Shown piece by piece: positions 27,229 through 63,854 of a DNA stretch of 64,000 nt (position 1 is its first letter; each line of letters opens with the position of its first letter). A program made the position numbers and the translations under genes. The notes beneath the pieces are model-generated. The model searched no databases. It saw nothing but the letters and a program-made list of their open reading frames with translations, and was not told the origin of the DNA. Source of the DNA: Zasmidium citrigriseum. Its lineage: Eukaryota > Ascomycota > Dothideomycetes > Mycosphaerellales > Mycosphaerellaceae. The stretch is taken from contig NHNW01000017.1 in assembly GCA_002786025.1 (NCBI GenBank), positions 310,001-374,000 on the forward strand, given 5' to 3'.

Positions 27229-28841
27229 TCAGTCCCCAGCCTCACGCACAGGGTCATGATAAGTAAACACTTCCTCCCCAGCGACGCCAGGTGCCCTCCA
27301 AGTACTCACACCAGAATCTTCGTCGTACGACTCGAAACTATTCGCCAACCGCTTTCCGCCTCCGCCAGGCAGGTCGACGATGAACGACGGCATCATGAAT
27401 CCGGCAATCGTGCCTCGGATTTGCTTCTCGAGTTGCAAGATTGTTGACAGCGGTGTGCGGAGCTCCTCGACGCCTCGAATCAGGTCGGACTGGTAGACGT
27501 AGTAGGGCATCACGTTGAGGTCAGCGAGCCGCCGGATGAGAAGAGACATGGTTGAGACGTCGTCGTTGACGCCGCGCAGCAGAACGGTCTGGTTGCGGAC
27601 GGTCACCCCTCGAGAGAACAGGTACTTTGCAGCGCGCTCTGTTGCCCAGGTGACCTCGTTGGGGTGGTTGAAGTGAGTGTGCATTGCGACTTGCTTGCCC
27701 ATCTGCCGCCCTTGCTCGCTCAACGCGACGAATGCCTCCGTCCACGCGTCAGATTTGTCGAGGACCCGCATGGGACAGACTGCGAGGCCTTTGGTCGCGA
27801 AGCGAAAGCGCTGGATGTGAGGGATGGAGAGCAGGCGTTCACCGATCAGCCGGAGTTGATCAGGTTGAAGGTAGTACGAGTCGCCGCCAGAGACGACCAC
27901 GTCTTGGACCTGTGGATTCTGGGCGATGTACTCGAACATAGCCTCCCAACGTTTACGCGTCGGACGTTGCGAAGCCTTGGTGACGGACTCTGTGTTGCTA
28001 CCGACGGCGTAGGAACGCGTGCAGAAGCGACAGTAGACTGGACAGACCGATGTGGCTGAGACGGATTAGCATTGGCAATCGACCAGGAGTAGAGTGAAGA
28101 AGGTCTCACCGAGGAACAAAACCTTGTCAGGATACCGATGGACGAGTCCAGGAACGGGAGAGTCTGCCGTCTCGTGCAACGAGTCGAATGAGAGTGCTTC
28201 GTGATCTGGACGCGCTGTGGACTTCAGAGGCACAAATTGGCGTCTGATCGGGTCCTCGAGGGGGTTGCTCCAGTCTGCCACGCTCAGGACATGCGGCGTC
28301 AGCCGTATAGCCATTGGCGCCGCCTTGATGCCTTCTTCGACATCAGTCAGGAAGTCTTCGCGAGTCTTGATGCCTCTCAGTTTGTGGTCTGTCCCGACAG
28401 GTTGTGGGATTCGATCAGGCAAGACTCCTGCGAGGAATCTCAACAGTTTGTCCTTTCGGTCGATCGTGTTCGCGACCTGTTCGACAATTATCAACGCCAT
28501 CCCACTTATATGTAAGTATTACCACTGACCTGCCATCTGTAGCTGAGAAAATCTTCCTCGGGAACGGCTCGCCATATGCCAATATGCTGCCAGTACGGAG
28601 CATCTCGTCGGTGATTGTGGTAAGCGGGCGTGAGCGAGAAGGGCTGTGATTGATAGAAGCCGGGAGGAACGAACGACTGATCGCTACTCCGATCGATGAG
28701 GCCAGCTTGGATGGCATGAGTTCTTGTTTGGTGAAAGGTTCTCGCGACCGGCCAACGAGAAGTCATTCTTTGGGATCCGACGACATGGGAAGCCTTGTCA
28801 TGGTATCTCGCCAAAAGACGGGAACGGGAGGGGAAAGCCAT
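27229..28841 (-). CDS. L-lysine 2,3-aminomutase family radical-SAM protein, probably mitochondrial
   Basis: Three exons, 28841-28530, 28476-28110 and 28055-27229 (introns 53 and 54 bp); 501 residues. KamA enzymes interconvert lysine and beta-lysine using a [4Fe-4S] cluster, S-adenosylmethionine and PLP. Seen: the radical-SAM CxxxCxxC motif in VCPVYCRFCTR, VVVSGGDSYYL, and the PLP-lysine signature DLPGGGGK near the C-terminus. The N-terminus (MAFPSRSRLLARYHDKASHVV) is Arg/Ser-rich and resembles a mitochondrial presequence. A further in-frame ATG at 28904 would add 21 residues. The bacterial-type domain with eukaryotic introns and presequence suggests an old acquisition. Physiological substrate and role in fungi are unclear. 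Confidence 0.88.
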
Positions 28842-55309: not shown

Positions 55310-56189
55310 TCTTTCCACTTCCAACAGGATCAACAAGATTTCCACAAAACAGGAATTGACGACTTGGGAGGACTTCAGACGAATCGAAGGCTATGAAATC
55401 TAAGAAGGGCCTCGCCAGCTTACATACCCACCACCCGGCCGGCTTTCGTCGATCCACCCACAACAAGCTTTTGCTATTGGTTTTCACCTCCTAGGACCAA
55501 CTGTCAATAGCGACTCCCGCCCAACGATAGAACCCCGTGATCAGCCGTCGGACTTCGGGCTTTCTTTCCTGCTGGCAAGGTGGTCTGATATCCGAAGATC
55601 ATGCGGCTCGTAAGGCTGCGCTGCGCTGCGATGGCTATGTGAAAGTGGGTCTATTGCGTCTTTTTACAACTTGGGTGGCTTGAGTCAAGAGGTGATATCC
55701 ACACGCTGCACATGACAAAGACACTTCTTGCTGTGGATTCGACTTCAGCATCTACACCCCTGAGTTTCAGACGATATGCAAGATCTCGACCAACGCCTTC
55801 AGGCTGGGGTGGACTTGGAAAGTAAACAACTATCGGTCTGCCCGCTCTATTGGATCTGCTCTGCACTGATCTGCAGAACAGTTAACTTCCTACGATCCAC
55901 AAATATTGGGACGTCACGACGACCTCCACAAACGAGAAACGAAAGGTGAAACTCCAAAATTTATACGAAATCCATTCACATCTATCCAAGGAAAGTAAAG
56001 CACAAGAGACTCCCAAAACTCCCCGCTGTTTTTCTCCTTTTCCACAAATTTTCGCCCCGATCCCCCAAACCCCTCCGCTCAGAAAGAAAGCGACCGTAAC
56101 AGAATCCGAAGATTCAGAAACCAAGGAAAAGCCATTCATCCTCCATCATCGTAAAGTCGCTTCCGTACCAAATCATGGAGCCGTTGGGG
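55310..56189. other. Intergenic between the transporter and the repeat precursor
   Basis: 880 bp: promoter side of the transporter gene and the 3' flank of the repeat-protein gene. No gene was recognised. Confidence 0.4.
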
Positions 56190-57479
56190 CTAGTTCTTGT
56201 CGGCAGCCTTTGGGGACCAAACGTACTGGGGAGCAGCTTCGCCGCGCTTCTCAGCGGCTTTTGGAGACCAGACGTATTGAGGAGCGGCCTCAGCACGCTT
56301 CTCGGCAGCTTTTGGAGACCAGACGTATTGGGGAGCGGCTTCACCAGCCTCCTCACGCTTCTCGGCGGCCTTTGGGGACCAGACGTATTGAGGAGCGGCC
56401 TCAGCACGCTTCTCAGCAGCTTTTGGAGACCAGACGTATTGGGGAGCGGCTTCAGCGGCCTCCTCACGCTTCTCGGCGGCCTTTGGGGACCAGACGTATT
56501 GAGGAGCGGCCTCAGCACGCTTCTCAGCAGCCTTTGGAGACCAGACGTATTGGGGAGCAGCTTCAGCGGCCTCCTCACGCTTCTCGGCGGCCTTTGGGGA
56601 CCAGACGTACTGAGGAGCGGCTTCAGCACGCTTCTCAGCTGCCTTTGGAGACCAGACGTATTGAGGAGCTGCCTCAACTTCCTCTCCTCGCTTCTCGGCG
56701 GCCTTTGGGGACCAGACGTACTGGGGAGCTGCCTCTGCACGCTTCTCGGCGGCCTTTGGGCTCCAGACGTACTGTGGTGCTGCCTCCGCTGCCTCACGCT
56801 TCTCAGCTGCCTTTGGGCTCCAGACATATTGTGGTGCGGCTTCAGCACGCTTCTCGGCGGCCTTTGGGCTCCAGACGTATTGTGGTGCGGCTTCGGCACG
56901 CTTTTCGGCCGCCTTGGGGCTCCAGACATACTGCGGTGCAGCCTCTGCAGCCTCACGTTTCTCGGCCGCCTTAGGGCTCCAGACGTACTGGGGAGCGGCT
57001 TCGGCTGGGTCTCTCTTCTCAGCGGCCTTTGGCGACCAAACATATTGAGGAGCAGCTTCGGCTGGATCTCTCTTCTCAGCTGCCTTTGGCGACCAGACAT
57101 ACTGAGGAGCCGCCTCGGCTGGGTCTCTCTTCTCAGCGGCCTTTGGAGACCACACATACTGGGGCGCCGCCTCAGCGGGATCCCTCTTCTCCGCGGCCTT
57201 CGGGGACCAGACATACTGAGGAGCTGCTTCGGCGGGATCGCGCTTCTCTGCTGCCTTTGGCGACCACACATATTGAGGAGCGGCCTCAGCGGGATCCCGC
57301 TTCTCCGCTGCCTTTGGAGACCAGACATATTGGGGCGCAGCCTCGGCGGCTTCACGCTTGGCGGCGGCCTTTGGAGACCACACATACTGAGGAGCGGCCT
57401 CGCCGCGTGCGTCGATGGCAACAGCGTTGACGGTACCAATCAAGGCCACAAGGGCCGCTGCAGTGAAGCTGTACTTCAT
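56190..57479 (-). CDS. Secreted Kex2-processed repeat precursor (putative RiPP or peptide precursor)
   Basis: Intronless, 429 residues. A signal peptide (MKYSFTAAALVALIGTVNA) is followed by 22 tandem units. Every unit contains the invariant EAAPQYVWSPKAA, and the first 21 end in a Kex2-type KR; the last ends ADKN. Spacers vary: six DPAE units in a block (units 3-8), then units alternating between a bare A and EAAE, EEAAE, EEAGE or GEEVE. X-Ala/X-Pro dipeptides before the core suit Ste13-type trimming. Cleavage would release about 20 copies of a peptide around QYVWSPKAAE. Adjacent UstYa-family genes point to a dikaritin-type cyclic RiPP, whose cores carry an oxidised Tyr (compare YAIG of ustiloxin, YVIP of phomopsin). 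A mating-pheromone precursor is the alternative, but the W/G/C pattern of alpha-pheromones is absent. Confidence 0.9.
   Translation of the reverse strand: MKYSFTAAALVALIGTVNAVAIDARGEAAPQYVWSPKAAAKREAAEAAPQYVWSPKAAEKRDPAEAAPQYVWSPKAAEKRDPAEAAPQYVWSPKAAEKRDPAEAAPQYVWSPKAAEKRDPAEAAPQYVWSPKAAEKRDPAEAAPQYVWSPKAAEKRDPAEAAPQYVWSPKAAEKREAAEAAPQYVWSPKAAEKRAEAAPQYVWSPKAAEKRAEAAPQYVWSPKAAEKREAAEAAPQYVWSPKAAEKRAEAAPQYVWSPKAAEKRGEEVEAAPQYVWSPKAAEKRAEAAPQYVWSPKAAEKREEAAEAAPQYVWSPKAAEKRAEAAPQYVWSPKAAEKREEAAEAAPQYVWSPKAAEKRAEAAPQYVWSPKAAEKREEAGEAAPQYVWSPKAAEKRAEAAPQYVWSPKAAEKRGEAAPQYVWSPKAADKN
56193..57404 (-). repeat. 22-copy tandem repeat (51-60 bp units) encoding the EAAPQYVWSPKAA peptide
   Basis: Units of 17, 19 or 20 codons. 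The peptide core is identical in all copies, while DNA differs at synonymous sites: Gln CAA/CAG, Tyr TAT/TAC, Val GTC/GTG/GTT. The core Ser uses TCN in 17 units but AGC in a central run of five (about 56755-56985). Much of the N-terminal-proximal and C-terminal-proximal arrays look internally duplicated, consistent with birth and death of units. Confidence 0.95.
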
Positions 57480-58692
57480 TTTGATGGAGGTGGACGCTTG
57501 GCGTACGGTTCGGAATGAGTGTGTAGCTCGAGGGGCTTGTGATCGGAAAAGTTGGTAGAGACTGTGTCAAACGATCCAATGAACGATTGGTGATGCTGTT
57601 GTAGCTGATTTGATTGTTGTTGCTGATGATGCCAGAATGCTGCATTCTTCTGGATCTTATATATCTCTGTTGTTGTCTTCGAAGCCCGGAAGTCCATGAT
57701 TGCCAACTTGGCTGATAGTCCGTCGTTGAGGCCGTCGTCAAGTCCGCCATCCAGGTTGTAGTGTTGCCGTACTCCATCCGTCCGCTATGTTCTCCTTTCC
57801 AGTTTCCTCGCGCACGGCGTTGCGATGCGCTACGGGGTATTCTGTCAGCGCTACGCTGCTGTCTCTGTCCCTCCTGACTTGACGACGATGGTCTTAGCGC
57901 GTCATAGCCTACTCGGTCATTAGACATGAGGTCGGTGAAGTCGACGGATTCATTACGGCATCGCTCTGTCAGCCATGAGGCTCGTCAGGACCATGGCGGT
58001 CGTCCTAACTGGAATGTTAGCGTCGCAGGGTCCTGGCGCGTGACATTGCAGTGCTTCTCTCAACGCCGTATTCTCCCGACCGGCGCTCACGTCGATCTTG
58101 ATACCCACGACTCGATGGAACAGCCATCATTGAAGCAGAAATGCGGCCTTGGAGCCTGAGGCAGTCCAAGGCTGGGTGTGAGGCACGCTAGATGTCGCTA
58201 GCTCATTGTCACATGCTCCTCAAGCAGCCTGACTCGTCACCCTGACTGTTCTGCCAGAAAGCAGTCGGTGACCGAGAGCGGGTACGATAGCGGCATTGAC
58301 GAGTGAGGAAGAAGTTTTGAAAGACGAGCGGCGGAGTGGTGGTGGCTAGTGAGCGAGTGGGCCCGTGCGTATCGATGGGTGCTTTTATAGCAGGGGTATG
58401 AAGTCTATGCAGCCCCCCATGCAAACACTGGCATGAGCCATGTCATGATGCATCAAAGGCCCTCGAGGTTCATTGCGGCGGCACCGACGAGGAACGAAGT
58501 TTGTTCGACGGTCATCCGCAGTTGGCCCTTCCCAATACGAGGCCAGTACGAGGCCGAGAAGGTGCTAACGTTTTGCGCAACGATCGAAGGATCGTTGGGA
58601 AGGAAGGAGACACCGTGAATTGTCGGCCATCTTGATTCCTCGAAGCAGTGTCCCATCAATCGTCTCCTCTCTCGTCCATCACCGCATCCAGC
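57480..58692. promoter_or_regulatory. Divergent promoter of precursor and first UstYa gene
   Basis: 1.2 kb between divergent start codons. On the precursor side a TATA-like element (GATATATAAG on the minus strand, about 57656-57666) lies about 180 bp upstream of its ATG, followed by a CAA-rich leader, features of strongly expressed fungal genes. No ORF with a recognisable product was found. Confidence 0.5.
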
Positions 58693-59703
58693 ATGAACGG
58701 CGTTCCCAATTTCAAGGCGCTTCTGAACAACAAATACCATCAAGTCGCCCTTGATGAAGACGGTGGCAAGGAAGAAAGCCCCAGGATCGTCTACACGAAG
58801 CGACCGAACACAGCACTCTACTTATGCATCAGTTTTCTCGCTTTGGGTTGGGCGGCCACGGCCTTTTACATCTACTCTACAAAGTTTGAGTCCAACGGGC
58901 TTCTCCATGTCTATCACAACACTCCAATCCCCAAGGGTGTCTTCAGCCCTGTGAAGAAGGTCTTCAACAGAGACGAGCGATACATTGGGTGGAGTGACGA
59001 AGTGAATCGTAACTGGGACGCACTTGTAGCTGGTAATGCTTGATTGTTTCAAACTCGCATTGACCTGGAAACTGATTCATTCGATAGGTCACGACGCTGT
59101 TTGGATTGAGAATCCCTCAGAATGGGGACTGCCGCCAGGTCAAGTCGCACCATATGATCATCCCAACACTCCAGATCCTAAGCCGCACGACTTTTATGTC
59201 ATCTCGACTCTTCATTCTCTCCATTGCCTCGTAGGACCTTACTCTTCCCGCGGCCTTGAGATGTCGTAGCTAACGGGTTGCTAGAACATGATCCGCTTCC
59301 AATTCTTCGCCAACATCTTTGGACACAACGAGGATGGCGATTTCAACGATCCAGATTACACAGCGAAGCATTGGAATGTCCAGTAAGTCGCTGAAAGAGT
59401 GATCTCCTTCTATCCCAGACTGACATCCTTCAATCATCGAGCATTGCTTTGAGTACATGCGCCAAAGCATTTCATGTGGAGGAGATCTCATCCTGGAAGG
59501 ATCGAGCGCCGTCGATATTGACGGAAAGCAAGTCACATCAGTCACTGGCTGGGGTATGTTGATTTTTCCCGCATTTCGGGTCCTCAATGAATCTGCTAAC
59601 ACATCGACCAGGCGTGGAACACGACTGTATCGACTTCGATTTGCTGTGGCAATTTCAGTATGATCAAGAGGCAAAGTACAATCTCACCTGGCAGAGCCCC
59701 TGA
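58693..59703 (+). CDS. UstYa-family (DUF3328) RiPP oxidase-like membrane protein, with a splice/frame irregularity
   Basis: Exons 58693-59032, 59088-59230, 59285-about 59380, 59442-59553 and 59612-59703. UstYa-type proteins catalyse oxidative cyclisation of ribosomal peptides in fungal dikaritin pathways. Seen: a cytosolic N-terminus, one TM helix (ALYLCISFLALGWAATAFYI), RYIGWSDEVNRNWDALVAG, the first His/Cys motif LHSLHCL, the second motif HCFEYMRQSISCGGD, and GWGVEHDCIDFD near the end. All introns but the third are regular. At the third, the obvious GTAAGT donor (59383) and the only suitable AG (59441) leave the frame off by one and lead to an early stop. A weak GTCCAG donor at 59378 keeps frame, giving about 259 residues. 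The gene may be mis-assembled, weakly spliced or recently inactivated. Confidence 0.85.
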
Positions 59704-59757
59704 GACAGAAAGACAAAGACACTGTAGTAGATCGTGTAGCCTCAATACAGCATCTCG

Positions 59758-60390
59758 TCAAATCCCATATTTACTGACGTCCTTGTTCATCCCCTTCTTC
59801 ACCCAAACGCCTCCTTGAACGCCACCAAAAGCCTTCAGCGTGTGAATGCCACAATCCTCAAAGCCCAGACTCCTGAAAACGCCTTTCGAGGCTTCGTTCT
59901 CCGGATCGAAAAGTCCCAAGACCTCGTGTACACCGACTTCCTTCTCAGCATAGTCCATCAAAGCCTGCGAAGCCTCCCGAGCGTACCCTTTCCTTGTCTC
60001 TTCTGGCAAGATTGCGAAGCCCAGATCGGGTGCTTTGTAGTCGTTGGGACCGTCACCACGCATGAGAGACACCGTCCCGATCAGCTTGCAGCGACTCAAT
60101 GTCCCTTGAAACTCTGTCGTTTCGTTGTTCGTTTCCTTTGACGAAGCCTCTGGCTGTGCCTTCAGCGAGACGAGATAGATGCCATATCCATTGCGACGTT
60201 GATCGTCCGTGATACGTCCTTCGATCCTCTTTCGTGCATCCTCGCGAGTCTTGATCCCAGCATTTCCAAGCGCTGAGATGAATTCAGGTGTGTTGTACAG
60301 CTTGACCAGAAAGTCACAGTGAGCGTCGTTCGAGGGCTGGAGATAAGAGATGTAGAGCCTTGGGGTGGAAATATGGAAGTTCGGGTCCAT
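59758..60390 (-). CDS. GNAT-family acetyltransferase (RimJ/RimL-like)
   Basis: Single exon, 210 residues from the ATG at 60390; the frame extends upstream without a better start. It begins FHISTPRLYISYLQPSND, the classic acetyltransf_3 opening, and continues with KLIGTVSLMRG, PDLGFAILPEETRKGYAREA (acetyl-CoA loop), EVLGLFDPENEASKGVFRSLGF and a C-terminal GGVQGGVWVKKG. This subgroup acetylates N-termini or small amines. It lies between the two UstYa-family genes and converges on the first with 54 bp between stops, so it might modify the peptide. General housekeeping roles are equally possible. Confidence 0.85.
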   Translation of the reverse strand: MDPNFHISTPRLYISYLQPSNDAHCDFLVKLYNTPEFISALGNAGIKTREDARKRIEGRITDDQRRNGYGIYLVSLKAQPEASSKETNNETTEFQGTLSRCKLIGTVSLMRGDGPNDYKAPDLGFAILPEETRKGYAREASQALMDYAEKEVGVHEVLGLFDPENEASKGVFRSLGFEDCGIHTLKAFGGVQGGVWVKKGMNKDVSKYGI

Positions 60391-60650
60391 CGCGATGGGA
60401 ATAAGAATCGCTTGTAGAGTTCGGCAATGAAATGTGTCAGAACTGAAAATGAAAGTTTTATGGTCGATGTGGCACACTCGGTCGTGAAGGTTCTGGGCGG
60501 CCGGACGACTGACATTTGAGTTCAGCTGTACCCTACCGCAGCGACCAGGCTGGACTCGGGGTCGGGTCGTGAGATTGTCCGCGGCCGCCTTGCCTGAATA
60601 GATTGAAGAGCAATGACGCTTGTAAAGTCCATTGATTTTCTCTAGATGTC
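60391..60650. other. Short intergenic between GNAT and second UstYa gene
   Basis: 260 bp; GNAT promoter and 3' flank of the UstYa-family gene. Nothing else was recognised. Confidence 0.35.
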
Positions 60651-61715
60651 CTACGATATGGTAGAGTTCCATGTGCTATTGTACAGCATCAACTGCTCTT
60701 TCTGCCACTGCAGCAGTCTATCCCAATTGATACAAGAGTGAACAACGCCCTGGGAAGTCGTTAGTACAACGTTCATTACTTGAGATATCACTGTGACTGC
60801 TGCTCACCCAAGCCAATCCTCCGATATAGAACTCCTCCGGGCTTCCTGGAGGCGAGTCGCTCTCCAAAACCATGTAGTCAGCTACAATATCGTCAGCAAC
60901 CTAGCCCTCAACATGAAGATCGTTCAGACCTACCACAAGTAATCGAGTAGCGCAAGTACTCAATGCAATGCTCAACATGCTCAATCCAATCCTCATCGGC
61001 AGGATTCTTGGCCAGCGGCGTTACGTCCGGATCATACACCAACATGTTGTACCTTCTCCTAATCACATTCGTGCAATGCAACTGATGCAAAGTGTTCAAC
61101 ACATAGAAGTTCTTGACATTGTCGAGCGAAGCCGCCGCTGGAGGTGGCTCGTCGAAGATGAACATAGGCGCCCGGATGCCTGGATCGTGAAGCCCATACC
61201 GTCCTGGATCAGGGAGGAAGACTGAGTCCGAGCCTGCACAGCATGATTAGCAATGCGGAGTGCCTTGAATGGGCAGTGCAAAGTATACTCACTGTCTGTC
61301 AGGGCAGCCCAGTGTGAATTGACTTCGTGGCCGGGACCCATGTATCTTCGATCAGGACTTTGGAAAGATCAGTCTCTTCAATCCGGTGCAAACTCTGGAA
61401 CATGATCTCGTACCTGAAAGCAACATTCTGTCGTAATGTGAAGATTTCCTGGGGGATGGGCGAGTTGGGAGTAATGCCCCAGTTCGTGACTGAAAACCGC
61501 GAGTAACGCACGCACGCGTACCCGATCAGCAGACCAAGGCAAATGTTCAGCAATGCAAAAGAGGTGAAGAACCAGAGTTGATGCTTTCGATCCTTCGATG
61601 CCGATGTCGTCTGTCGTCGCCGTTGTTCCGTTTCGTCTTCATAGAGGAGTTGTTGGATTTCATAGGCATTGCCCTTTTCTTTCTCGTTGGTAGACATTGA
61701 TGGCAACATCGCCAT
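60651..61715 (-). CDS. UstYa-family (DUF3328) RiPP oxidase-like membrane protein
   Basis: Five exons: 61715-61414, 61345-61293, 61233-60934, 60881-60808 and 60749-60651 (introns 68, 59, 52 and 58 bp, phases consistent); 275 residues. Seen: a charged cytosolic N-terminus, a TM helix (LWFFTSFALLNICLGLLIGY), NVAFRYMGPGHEVNSHWAAL crossing the first junction, DPGRYGLHDPGIRAP, the motif LHQLHCTNVIRRRY, the second motif HVEHCIEYLRYSITC and GVVHSCINWDRL near the end. These match the paired HxxHC-type motifs of UstYa proteins. A further ATG at 61697 would remove six residues. All parts look intact, so this copy should be functional. The first donor is GTACGA. Confidence 0.92.
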
Positions 61716-62840: not shown

Positions 62841-63854
62841 ATGGCATCTGCTGAAAAGAAAAGTCAGCCAGAGTCCTCATCAAACACCAAACCATCAACA
62901 TGGACGACCGCCGCGCTCCTCCTTCCCATGCTTCTCTACGGAGTCACCAACTGGCCGCAGATCAGTTCGATGCTCACCTTGGATCGATGGGACATAGCTC
63001 AAGCAGTCCCCAAACTCACAACATCCGTCGTCAGCAATGCCCCCAGCAGCTCGCGCGAACAAATGACCGAGCGCTACGCACAAGCGTGCCCGGATCATCG
63101 TTACACTACAAGACTACTTTCCGCCGACCCGCTCATCATGTACGTGGAGGACATGATCACCAAAGAAGAAGCGGAGTATCTGCTCGTGCTGGCTGAGCCA
63201 TATTACATGGCATCGCCGCTCTCCGGTCCCATGGGAAGAACGTACGACAACGAATACCGCAAGTCGGTGTCGGCCGTCGTGCCCAACGACCCTGTGGTGT
63301 CGTGCATCACCAAGCGTGCTGCAGATTTCCAAGGTTTTCTGCCAGTGGGACACGTGGAGGACATACAACTGGTCAAGTACGGTGCGAGCGACTTGTTCCG
63401 CCCTCACTTCGACTGGCATCAGGGTATGCTCAACCCGCGAATCTCGACATTCTTCGTGTACGTCGCTTGCGACGATCCACGTGATGGGGGAAGCTGTGGA
63501 GGCGGTGAGACCGGGTTTCCACGCTGGTCAGGCTACTTCGCGACAGCTTGGTGTTCCATGGGTTTCGTTGATTGTGCGCAGTCCCGTGAGGGCGGCATCT
63601 ACTTCTCGCCAGTGGTTGGGAATGCTGTCTTTTGGCACAACTTCTACCCCAATGGGACCGGAGTTGAAGGGACGTACCACGCAGGGATGCCCGTGACGAA
63701 GGGCCGGAAGGTTGGGCTCAACATCTTCAGCAGGAGGGATGAGTACCACAGTGAAATTCTCGAGGTCCATGACAGGAGCCAACTGTCGGAGGAGGATAGG
63801 GCCAAGTGCGAGCAGCAGTCGAAGGATGGCCCATGCTACGTAGAGGTACTGTGA
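62841..63854 (+). CDS. Membrane-anchored 2-oxoglutarate/Fe(II) prolyl-4-hydroxylase-like oxygenase
   Basis: Single exon, 337 residues from the ATG at 62841. An N-terminal TM helix (TAALLLPMLLYGVTNW) anchors a P4H catalytic domain: ADPLIMYVEDMITKEEAEYL; the iron-binding H-x-D in RPHFDWHQG; GGGETGFP; VGNAVFWHNFYPNG; the distal His in TYHAGMPVTKGRKVGLNIFS with the 2-oxoglutarate-binding Lys. The C-terminus has extra cysteines (CEQQSKDGPCYVEVL). Such fungal P4H-like enzymes are mostly of unknown substrate. It is about 1.1 kb from the second UstYa-family gene. The RiPP core contains an invariant Pro, so peptide hydroxylation is an attractive but untested role. Confidence 0.92.
   Translation: MASAEKKSQPESSSNTKPSTWTTAALLLPMLLYGVTNWPQISSMLTLDRWDIAQAVPKLTTSVVSNAPSSSREQMTERYAQACPDHRYTTRLLSADPLIMYVEDMITKEEAEYLLVLAEPYYMASPLSGPMGRTYDNEYRKSVSAVVPNDPVVSCITKRAADFQGFLPVGHVEDIQLVKYGASDLFRPHFDWHQGMLNPRISTFFVYVACDDPRDGGSCGGGETGFPRWSGYFATAWCSMGFVDCAQSREGGIYFSPVVGNAVFWHNFYPNGTGVEGTYHAGMPVTKGRKVGLNIFSRRDEYHSEILEVHDRSQLSEEDRAKCEQQSKDGPCYVEVL

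What the first reader, a model, noticed from the sequence alone, without database searches (positions are those of the whole stretch)
56190..61715. Candidate new dikaritin-type RiPP cluster: Kex2-repeat precursor plus two UstYa-family genes
Sequence shows a secreted precursor with 22 identical EAAPQYVWSPKAA units, 21 followed by KR, next to two genes encoding TM proteins with the paired His/Cys motifs of UstYa (DUF3328) and a GNAT. Established knowledge: ustiloxin, phomopsin, asperipin and victorin pathways combine a Kex2-cut repeat precursor with UstYa homologues that oxidatively cyclise a Tyr-containing core. The Y-V-W-S-P core is reminiscent of phomopsin's Y-V-I-P but I know of no described product with it. 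That it makes a cyclic peptide is inference.
Basis: partly seen in the sequence, partly recalled or inferred. Interest (0 to 1): 0.92.

Follow-up and report, generated by a model that had tools for sequence, protein, structure and literature searches.

The report
Fungal gene cluster for repeat peptides
A mould related to Cercospora carries a compact gene set that very likely makes a secreted protein, cuts it into 22 nearly identical small peptides and chemically modifies them; the general kind is known, but no product with this peptide sequence turned up in the papers searched.

Summary
A 429-aa precursor (56190-57479, minus strand) has 22 exact EAAPQYVWSPKAA units and 21 KR sites; the units have 21 distinct DNA sequences but one protein sequence. 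Two adjacent genes are UstYa proteins (PF11807). The locus is larger than reported: a prolyl-4-hydroxylase-like gene follows (62841-63854), and a third UstYa gene starts about 290 bp outside the window. Relatives of UstYa1 and UstYa2 form separate clades; the seven named species found in both searches all have members on contigs of equal length. Best reading: a UstYa-type Kex2-repeat RiPP cluster, dikaritin in the broad sense. No tyrosinase lies on this contig, no methyltransferase was seen in the ORFs scanned, and cyclisation is inference. The core recalls a published orphan repeat motif, YVW[G/A][G/S] (PMC6339444), without matching it exactly. Caveat: intron 3 of UstYa1 lacks a canonical acceptor where relatives appear to splice, so this copy may be impaired. 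No precursor orthologue was found. New member of a known kind.

The parts
56190..57479 (-). Kex2-repeat precursor, 429 aa, signal-peptide-like N-terminus, 22 x EAAPQYVWSPKAA, 21 KR
   Evidence: silent divergence of units; one match in the genome
58693..59703 (+). UstYa1, five exons (58693-59032, 59088-59230, 59285-59377, 59442-59553, 59612-59703), 259 aa, HSLHC and HWNHC; third intron irregular
   Evidence: model; PF11807 100.2 bits; 77% to C. kikuchii CKM354_000715200; alignment
59758..60390 (-). GNAT acetyltransferase, 210 aa, no transmembrane-like stretch; role in the pathway uncertain
   Evidence: PF13302 70.6 bits; hydropathy
60651..61715 (-). UstYa2, five exons (61414-61715, 61293-61345, 60934-61233, 60808-60881, 60651-60749), 275 aa, HQLHC and HVEHC
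   Evidence: model; PF11807 86.7 bits; 72% to C. kikuchii CKM354_000715000
62841..63854 (+). prolyl-4-hydroxylase-like 2OG-Fe(II) oxygenase, 337 aa, weak N-terminal hydrophobic stretch, H189-x-D191, H280 and K290 in place
   Evidence: PF13640 27.7 bits (cut-off 27); PDB 2jig 5.9e-11; residues
53661..55173 (-). MFS_2-like transporter pieces about 1 kb beyond the precursor's end; start not determined; flank, membership not shown
   Evidence: PF13347 26.6 bits, just under the cut-off of 27, on one of two ORFs

Best explanation
A UstYa-type Kex2-repeat RiPP cluster. The precursor enters the secretory pathway (inferred from its N-terminus) and Kex2 cuts after the 21 KR sites (inferred). Carboxypeptidase and dipeptidyl-peptidase trimming would bring 16 of the 21 units that follow a KR to an AEAAPQYVWSPK... 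start (inferred from the linkers). UstYa1, UstYa2 and the neighbouring UstYa3, each with one membrane-anchor-like stretch, oxidise the peptide in the same compartment (inferred). Their most likely target is the Tyr of YVW, perhaps joined to the Trp two residues on, which is the spacing of the Y-x-I of ustiloxin and phomopsin (inferred). The P4H-like enzyme may hydroxylate a core proline (inferred). The GNAT may acetylate, or may be a bystander. Shown here: gene content, motifs, silent divergence of the core, and linkage of the UstYa1/UstYa2 pair in other fungi as far as contig lengths show it.
For: Precursor anatomy and silent divergence. PF11807 for UstYa1 and UstYa2 and, exon by exon, for UstYa3 (55.4 and 32.4 bits); two HxxHC motifs in each of the three models. 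About 1.1% of the genome lies within 10 kb of the 24 UstYa loci counted, this one included (a lower bound, since one search did not list UstYa1), so adjacency is unlikely by accident. UstYa1-like and UstYa2-like proteins form two starred clades of 24 and 22 of 61 rows. Tags are consecutive in N. ribis (SLS56_011127/011128); in C. kikuchii they are 000715200 and 000715000, which, if tags run in hundreds, leaves room for one gene, as the GNAT here. Literature: 1758 of 7878 Kex2-repeat precursors (22%) have DUF3328 neighbours, on average 3.09 genes away (PMC7329392 section 7).
Against: No product, expression data or orthologous precursor was seen (none of the 7995 candidates scored, all limited to 0.55-1.75 times the query length). 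DUF3328 proteins also act outside RiPPs and with other chemistries (PMC12048977 passages), so cyclisation does not follow from the domain. UstYa1 intron 3 has no AG where relatives appear to splice; the frame-keeping canonical pair has a weak donor and gives a protein four residues short, next to the second motif. No tyrosinase match on this contig; no methyltransferase or peptidase among the ORFs scanned. Whether the precursor, GNAT, P4H or MFS genes accompany the pair in other species was not tested. The P4H Pfam score barely passes its cut-off (27.7 against 27).
Confidence: 0.7

Rival explanations
1. The precursor releases a linear, unmodified signalling peptide (pheromone-like or developmental), and the UstYa genes act on something else.
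For: Kex2-repeat proteins can yield linear peptides (PMC7329392 abstract). Ste13-type dipeptides (XA or XP directly after KR) open 9 of 21 linkers (DPAEA 6, EAAEA 3). A cluster with three DUF3328 genes is up-regulated in Sordaria protoperithecia (PMC3472292 passage), though it is SMAC_09002-09009, not SMACR_07667, the Sordaria macrospora relative found here.
Against: Both Dothideomycete alpha-pheromone types (two Cys, or PYG[L/M]P[I/V]G) are absent. Pheromone precursors, with three exceptions, do not neighbour DUF3328 genes (PMC7329392 abstract). Three UstYa genes lie within 8 kb of this precursor.
Confidence: 0.13
2. The cluster is decaying in this strain: UstYa1 is mis-spliced, so the pathway is partly or wholly silent.
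For: Intron 3 lacks AG at the boundary inferred from relatives; the strong GTAAGT donor joined to the next AG loses the second HxxHC motif; all 14 relatives aligned have residues at the four positions that the in-frame model lacks.
Against: The remaining UstYa1 exons are open; precursor, UstYa2, UstYa3 and P4H frames are open with canonical splice ends where spliced; a GT-AG alternative keeps the frame and an HxxHC. A base error in the assembly is possible.
Confidence: 0.12
3. The UstYa enzymes modify the peptide without making a ring (dehydrogenation, hydroxylation or halogenation).
For: DUF3328 proteins are reported to hydroxylate and chlorinate in cyclochlorotine clusters (PMC12048977 passage); three UstYa homologues are needed for desaturation as well as cyclisation in phomopsin (PMC10512285 passage).
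Against: The reported products of Kex2-repeat precursors with UstYa are described as cyclic (PMC9233826 and PMC10512285 passages), and the core has Tyr.
Confidence: 0.05

Closest known systems
Dikaritins: ustiloxin and phomopsin
   Same: Signal-peptide precursor with Kex2-separated repeats; several UstYa genes (2 and 5); Tyr in the core
   Different: Core is APQYVWSPK, not EDYXI; no tyrosinase on the contig and no methyltransferase seen; a P4H-like oxygenase beside it; 22 repeats against 16 in ustiloxin
Asperipin-2a
   Same: UstYa-dependent Kex2-repeat RiPP whose cluster lacks a peptidase gene
   Different: One UstYa gene there, at least three here; its reductase was not seen among the ORFs scanned here
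Conserved orphan Kex2-repeat motif 4, YVW[G/A][G/S], Le Marquer et al. 2019 (PMC6339444)
   Same: Repeated YVW core in Pezizomycotina
   Different: S-P follows YVW here; the species list (a figure and a supplement) and any UstYa neighbours of motif 4 were not visible in the text held
Lichen RiPP Clan R2 (PMC12048977)
   Same: UstY gene with GNAT genes near it
   Different: One UstY gene and no repeat precursor found there

Membership tests
Dikaritin, broad sense (Kex2-repeat precursor cyclised by UstYa homologues; wording in PMC10512285 passage) | Secreted precursor with Kex2-separated repeats | tested here: met
   signal peptide judged by hydropathy only
Dikaritin, broad sense | One or more UstYa (DUF3328) genes beside the precursor, with two HxxHC motifs | tested here: met
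   UstYa1 splicing uncertain
Dikaritin, broad sense | Core peptide cyclised by UstYa | not testable with these tools
   needs LC-MS/MS and deletions
Dikaritin, five-gene definition of Ding et al. (as summarised in PMC12048977) | Tyrosinase gene in the cluster | tested here: not met
   22 PF00264 matches in the genome, none on contig C58
Dikaritin, five-gene definition of Ding et al. (as summarised in PMC12048977) | Methyltransferase gene in the cluster | tested here: inconclusive
   none among the ORFs scanned between 53.6 and 66.7 kb; short ORFs were not scanned
Dikaritin, five-gene definition of Ding et al. (as summarised in PMC12048977) | Transporter or peptidase gene | tested here: inconclusive
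   MFS_2-like ORF at 26.6 bits, cut-off 27
Ustiloxin/phomopsin subgroup | EDYXI core | tested here: not met
   core is APQYVWSPK; motif
Orphan motif 4 YVW[G/A][G/S] | Exact motif | tested here: not met
   YVW present, followed by S-P; motif
Dothideomycete alpha-pheromone precursor | Two conserved Cys, or PYG[L/M]P[I/V]G | tested here: not met
   no Cys and no PYG in the precursor; types
Prolyl 4-hydroxylase (62841-63854) | HxD...H iron site and 2OG-binding Lys (roles recalled) | tested here: met
   aligned to PDB 2jig; positions; activity not tested

The most novel reading that the evidence does not exclude
An old Pezizomycotina family of YVW peptides has its own UstYa1/UstYa2 pair that joins Tyr to the Trp two residues on, the place that Ile holds in ustiloxin and phomopsin, and in this lineage a collagen-type prolyl hydroxylase adds a hydroxyproline. 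This would give the orphan YVW repeat motif of the 2019 survey an enzyme pair and a chemistry.
Probability: 0.22. Interest if true: 0.72.

Novelty: new member of a known kind. Interest (0 to 1): 0.47.

Why it matters
Five dikaritins had been reported by 2022 (PMC10512285 passage), against 1758 Kex2-repeat precursors with DUF3328 neighbours (PMC7329392 section 7). A UstYa pair that seems to stay linked across Dothideomycetes and Sordariomycetes (class names recalled), beside a precursor with 22 unchanged copies of one core, makes an orphan peptide family directly testable. The predicted model of a UstYa2 orthologue has no significant match among solved structures (best E 4.8), so the family's fold is open too.

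Tried and rejected
Precursor homologue search: none. It cannot exclude relatives shorter than 0.55 times the query, nor relatives with another core. Viral-contig search with UstYa2: 6 pattern matches, none confirmed. Text searches for the core letters: 0 papers, but figures and supplements are not searched, so absence from print is not shown. Searches for a hydroxylase or P4H beside UstYa genes: 4 papers, 3 listed, and 89 papers, 15 listed; by title those listed are reviews or papers on other prolyl hydroxylases and 2OG oxygenases, so this is weak evidence of absence. Searches gave no product with this core in their listings. Sordaria lead: SMACR_07667 is a UstYa2 relative, but the developmental DUF3328 cluster is SMAC_09002-09009 and PMC6293562 held nothing on it, so I dropped the link. 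The plus-strand ORF over the repeat (56100-57515) was rejected, since the variable columns sit at third codon positions of the minus frame. The bacterial promoter scan is not meaningful for a fungus; repeats between the divergent genes showed nothing useful. My scan for repeat precursors found them at 2 of the 18 other UstYa loci whose hits had been fetched, of 23 others, with about 1.5 kb flanks, so this is a lower bound; wider flanks at three of these (L035-L038) added none. The scan is not specific: in the window it also flagged two frames at 49.8-50.7 kb, inside the tandem repeats of the RanBP1-domain gene, and wrong frames of true precursors. The random-region control for this scan was never run.
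Full report
What is there. The window is G000:C58:310001-374000 of a 44.4 Mb assembly in 148 contigs. The precursor ORF (57479 to 56190, minus strand) encodes 429 aa with a hydrophobic N-terminus, 22 exact EAAPQYVWSPKAA units and 21 KR. The genome search with it returned one match, itself.

Selection. The 22 39-bp units have 21 distinct DNA sequences that differ by 6.9 bases per pair on average, with identical protein; about 24% of single base changes would be silent, and a minimum spanning tree needs 71 changes. A few of these are the two-base TCN/AGC serine switch. The linkers vary: AEA 7, DPAEA 6, EAAEA 3, EEAAEA 2 and three singletons, of 21. So the unit is kept while the linkers drift. 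Gene conversion between copies would lower the number of independent changes, so the p-value printed is not to be read literally.

Enzymes. UstYa1 and UstYa2 match PF11807 at 100.2 and 86.7 bits (cut-off 25), and the GNAT matches PF13302. Beyond UstYa2 lies a P4H-like gene whose HxD, His and Lys align with those of PDB 2jig, a prolyl 4-hydroxylase; its Pfam score only just passes (27.7 against 27), and a second relative in the genome is 37% identical. A third UstYa gene follows at C58:374290-375220, with HQLHC and HRDHC (PF11807 on two exons). Then comes a PEP-mutase/isocitrate-lyase-like gene, which I do not count in. From the precursor to UstYa3, gaps between neighbours run from 54 to 1213 bp. 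Pfam named many genes left of 53 kb: some look like housekeeping (AROM, Rad1, Nup85, a RanBP1-domain protein), others need not be (AMP-binding, GH20, phospholipase B, radical SAM). I scanned 26 of the 52 ORFs listed, plus the precursor and the two spliced UstYa proteins.

Conservation. UstYa1 gave 23 relatives among 101 candidates and the UstYa2+UstYa3 alignment 36 among 2824. In a tree of 61 rows (58 of the 59 relatives, one under 150 aa left out, plus the three proteins from this locus), UstYa1 falls in a starred clade of 24, UstYa2 in one of 22 and UstYa3 in one of 4 (some long branches elsewhere are unsure). Seven named species occur in both lists: C. kikuchii, Neofusicoccum ribis, Lasiodiplodia hormozganensis, Podospora appendiculata, Rhypophila decipiens, Xylariaceae sp. 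FL1651, Microdochium trichocladiopsis. The other named species occur in one list only. In this genome, apart from the window's own locus, no match to either protein of 100 residues or more exceeds 33% identity (shorter pieces reach 48%). I could not see what lies beside the pairs in other species, so conservation of the precursor, GNAT and P4H with the pair is not shown; for UstYa3 there is only Dothistroma, with UstYa2 and UstYa3 relatives at equal contig length.

UstYa1 splicing. Against 14 relatives, the model made with GT-AG ends lacks four residues just before the second HC, and its donor (GTCCAG) is weak. The strong donor GTAAGT has no AG acceptor where the relatives' protein puts the boundary; paired with the next AG it loses the second motif. 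The motif HWNHC in the model is thus a product of the splice chosen. This is an assembly error, unusual splicing or real damage; RNA data would decide. I leave it there.

Structure. AlphaFold2 of the C. kikuchii UstYa2 orthologue with a 35-sequence alignment: mean pLDDT 83.4, pTM 0.72, one long helix at 40-67 and then a mostly helical domain. Foldseek against the PDB gave 11 matches, best E 4.8, none significant. The sequence search of UstYa2 found no PDB chain at E up to 1.

How it most likely works. As in Best explanation. Shown: gene content, repeat anatomy, silent divergence, contig-level linkage of the pair. Inferred: secretion, Kex2 cutting, trimming, oxidation by UstYa, Tyr-Trp join, proline hydroxylation. 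The spacing argument rests on the published EDYXI motif and on the Tyr-Ile link of ustiloxins and phomopsins (PMC9233826 passage); that Trp can take Ile's place is a guess.

Literature seen. PMC6339444: abstract, second part of Results, section 17 and passages. PMC7329392: abstract, sections 6 and 7 and a term search. PMC9632046, PMC12048977, PMC9233826, PMC10512285, PMC5006380, PMC3472292, PMC6293562: passages only. [quoted passage not shown] That is a lead on when such clusters are used, not evidence for this locus.

Verdict. A well-formed new member of the UstYa/Kex2-repeat RiPP kind, with a P4H-like neighbour, a high repeat number (22; about 5 on average, PMC10512285 passage) and an enzyme pair that appears linked in several fungi. 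Product and cyclisation are unproven, and UstYa1 may be impaired in this strain.

Noticed in passing
L001 (G000:C110:174686-178345): A second Kex2-repeat precursor (10 YTIPK copies in the part held; the ORF runs off the locus) beside a UstYa gene; its Y-T-I-P core is closer to the Y-x-I style of ustiloxin and phomopsin.
   Followed up: no
L003 (G000:C110:37869-41381): A third repeat precursor, PPIYRPLVNVALPPSDEKR-type units (4 YRPLV copies), beside a UstYa gene.
   Followed up: no
G000:C129:44000-51500 (L035, L036): Several UstYa matches with two tyrosinase matches among them; no repeat precursor found by my scan.
   Followed up: partly
window 59378-59441: Third intron of UstYa1 has no canonical acceptor where relatives appear to splice.
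   Followed up: partly
window 27232-28065, minus strand: Radical SAM ORF with a weak lysine-2,3-aminomutase C-terminal match, unusual in a fungus as far as I recall.
   Followed up: no
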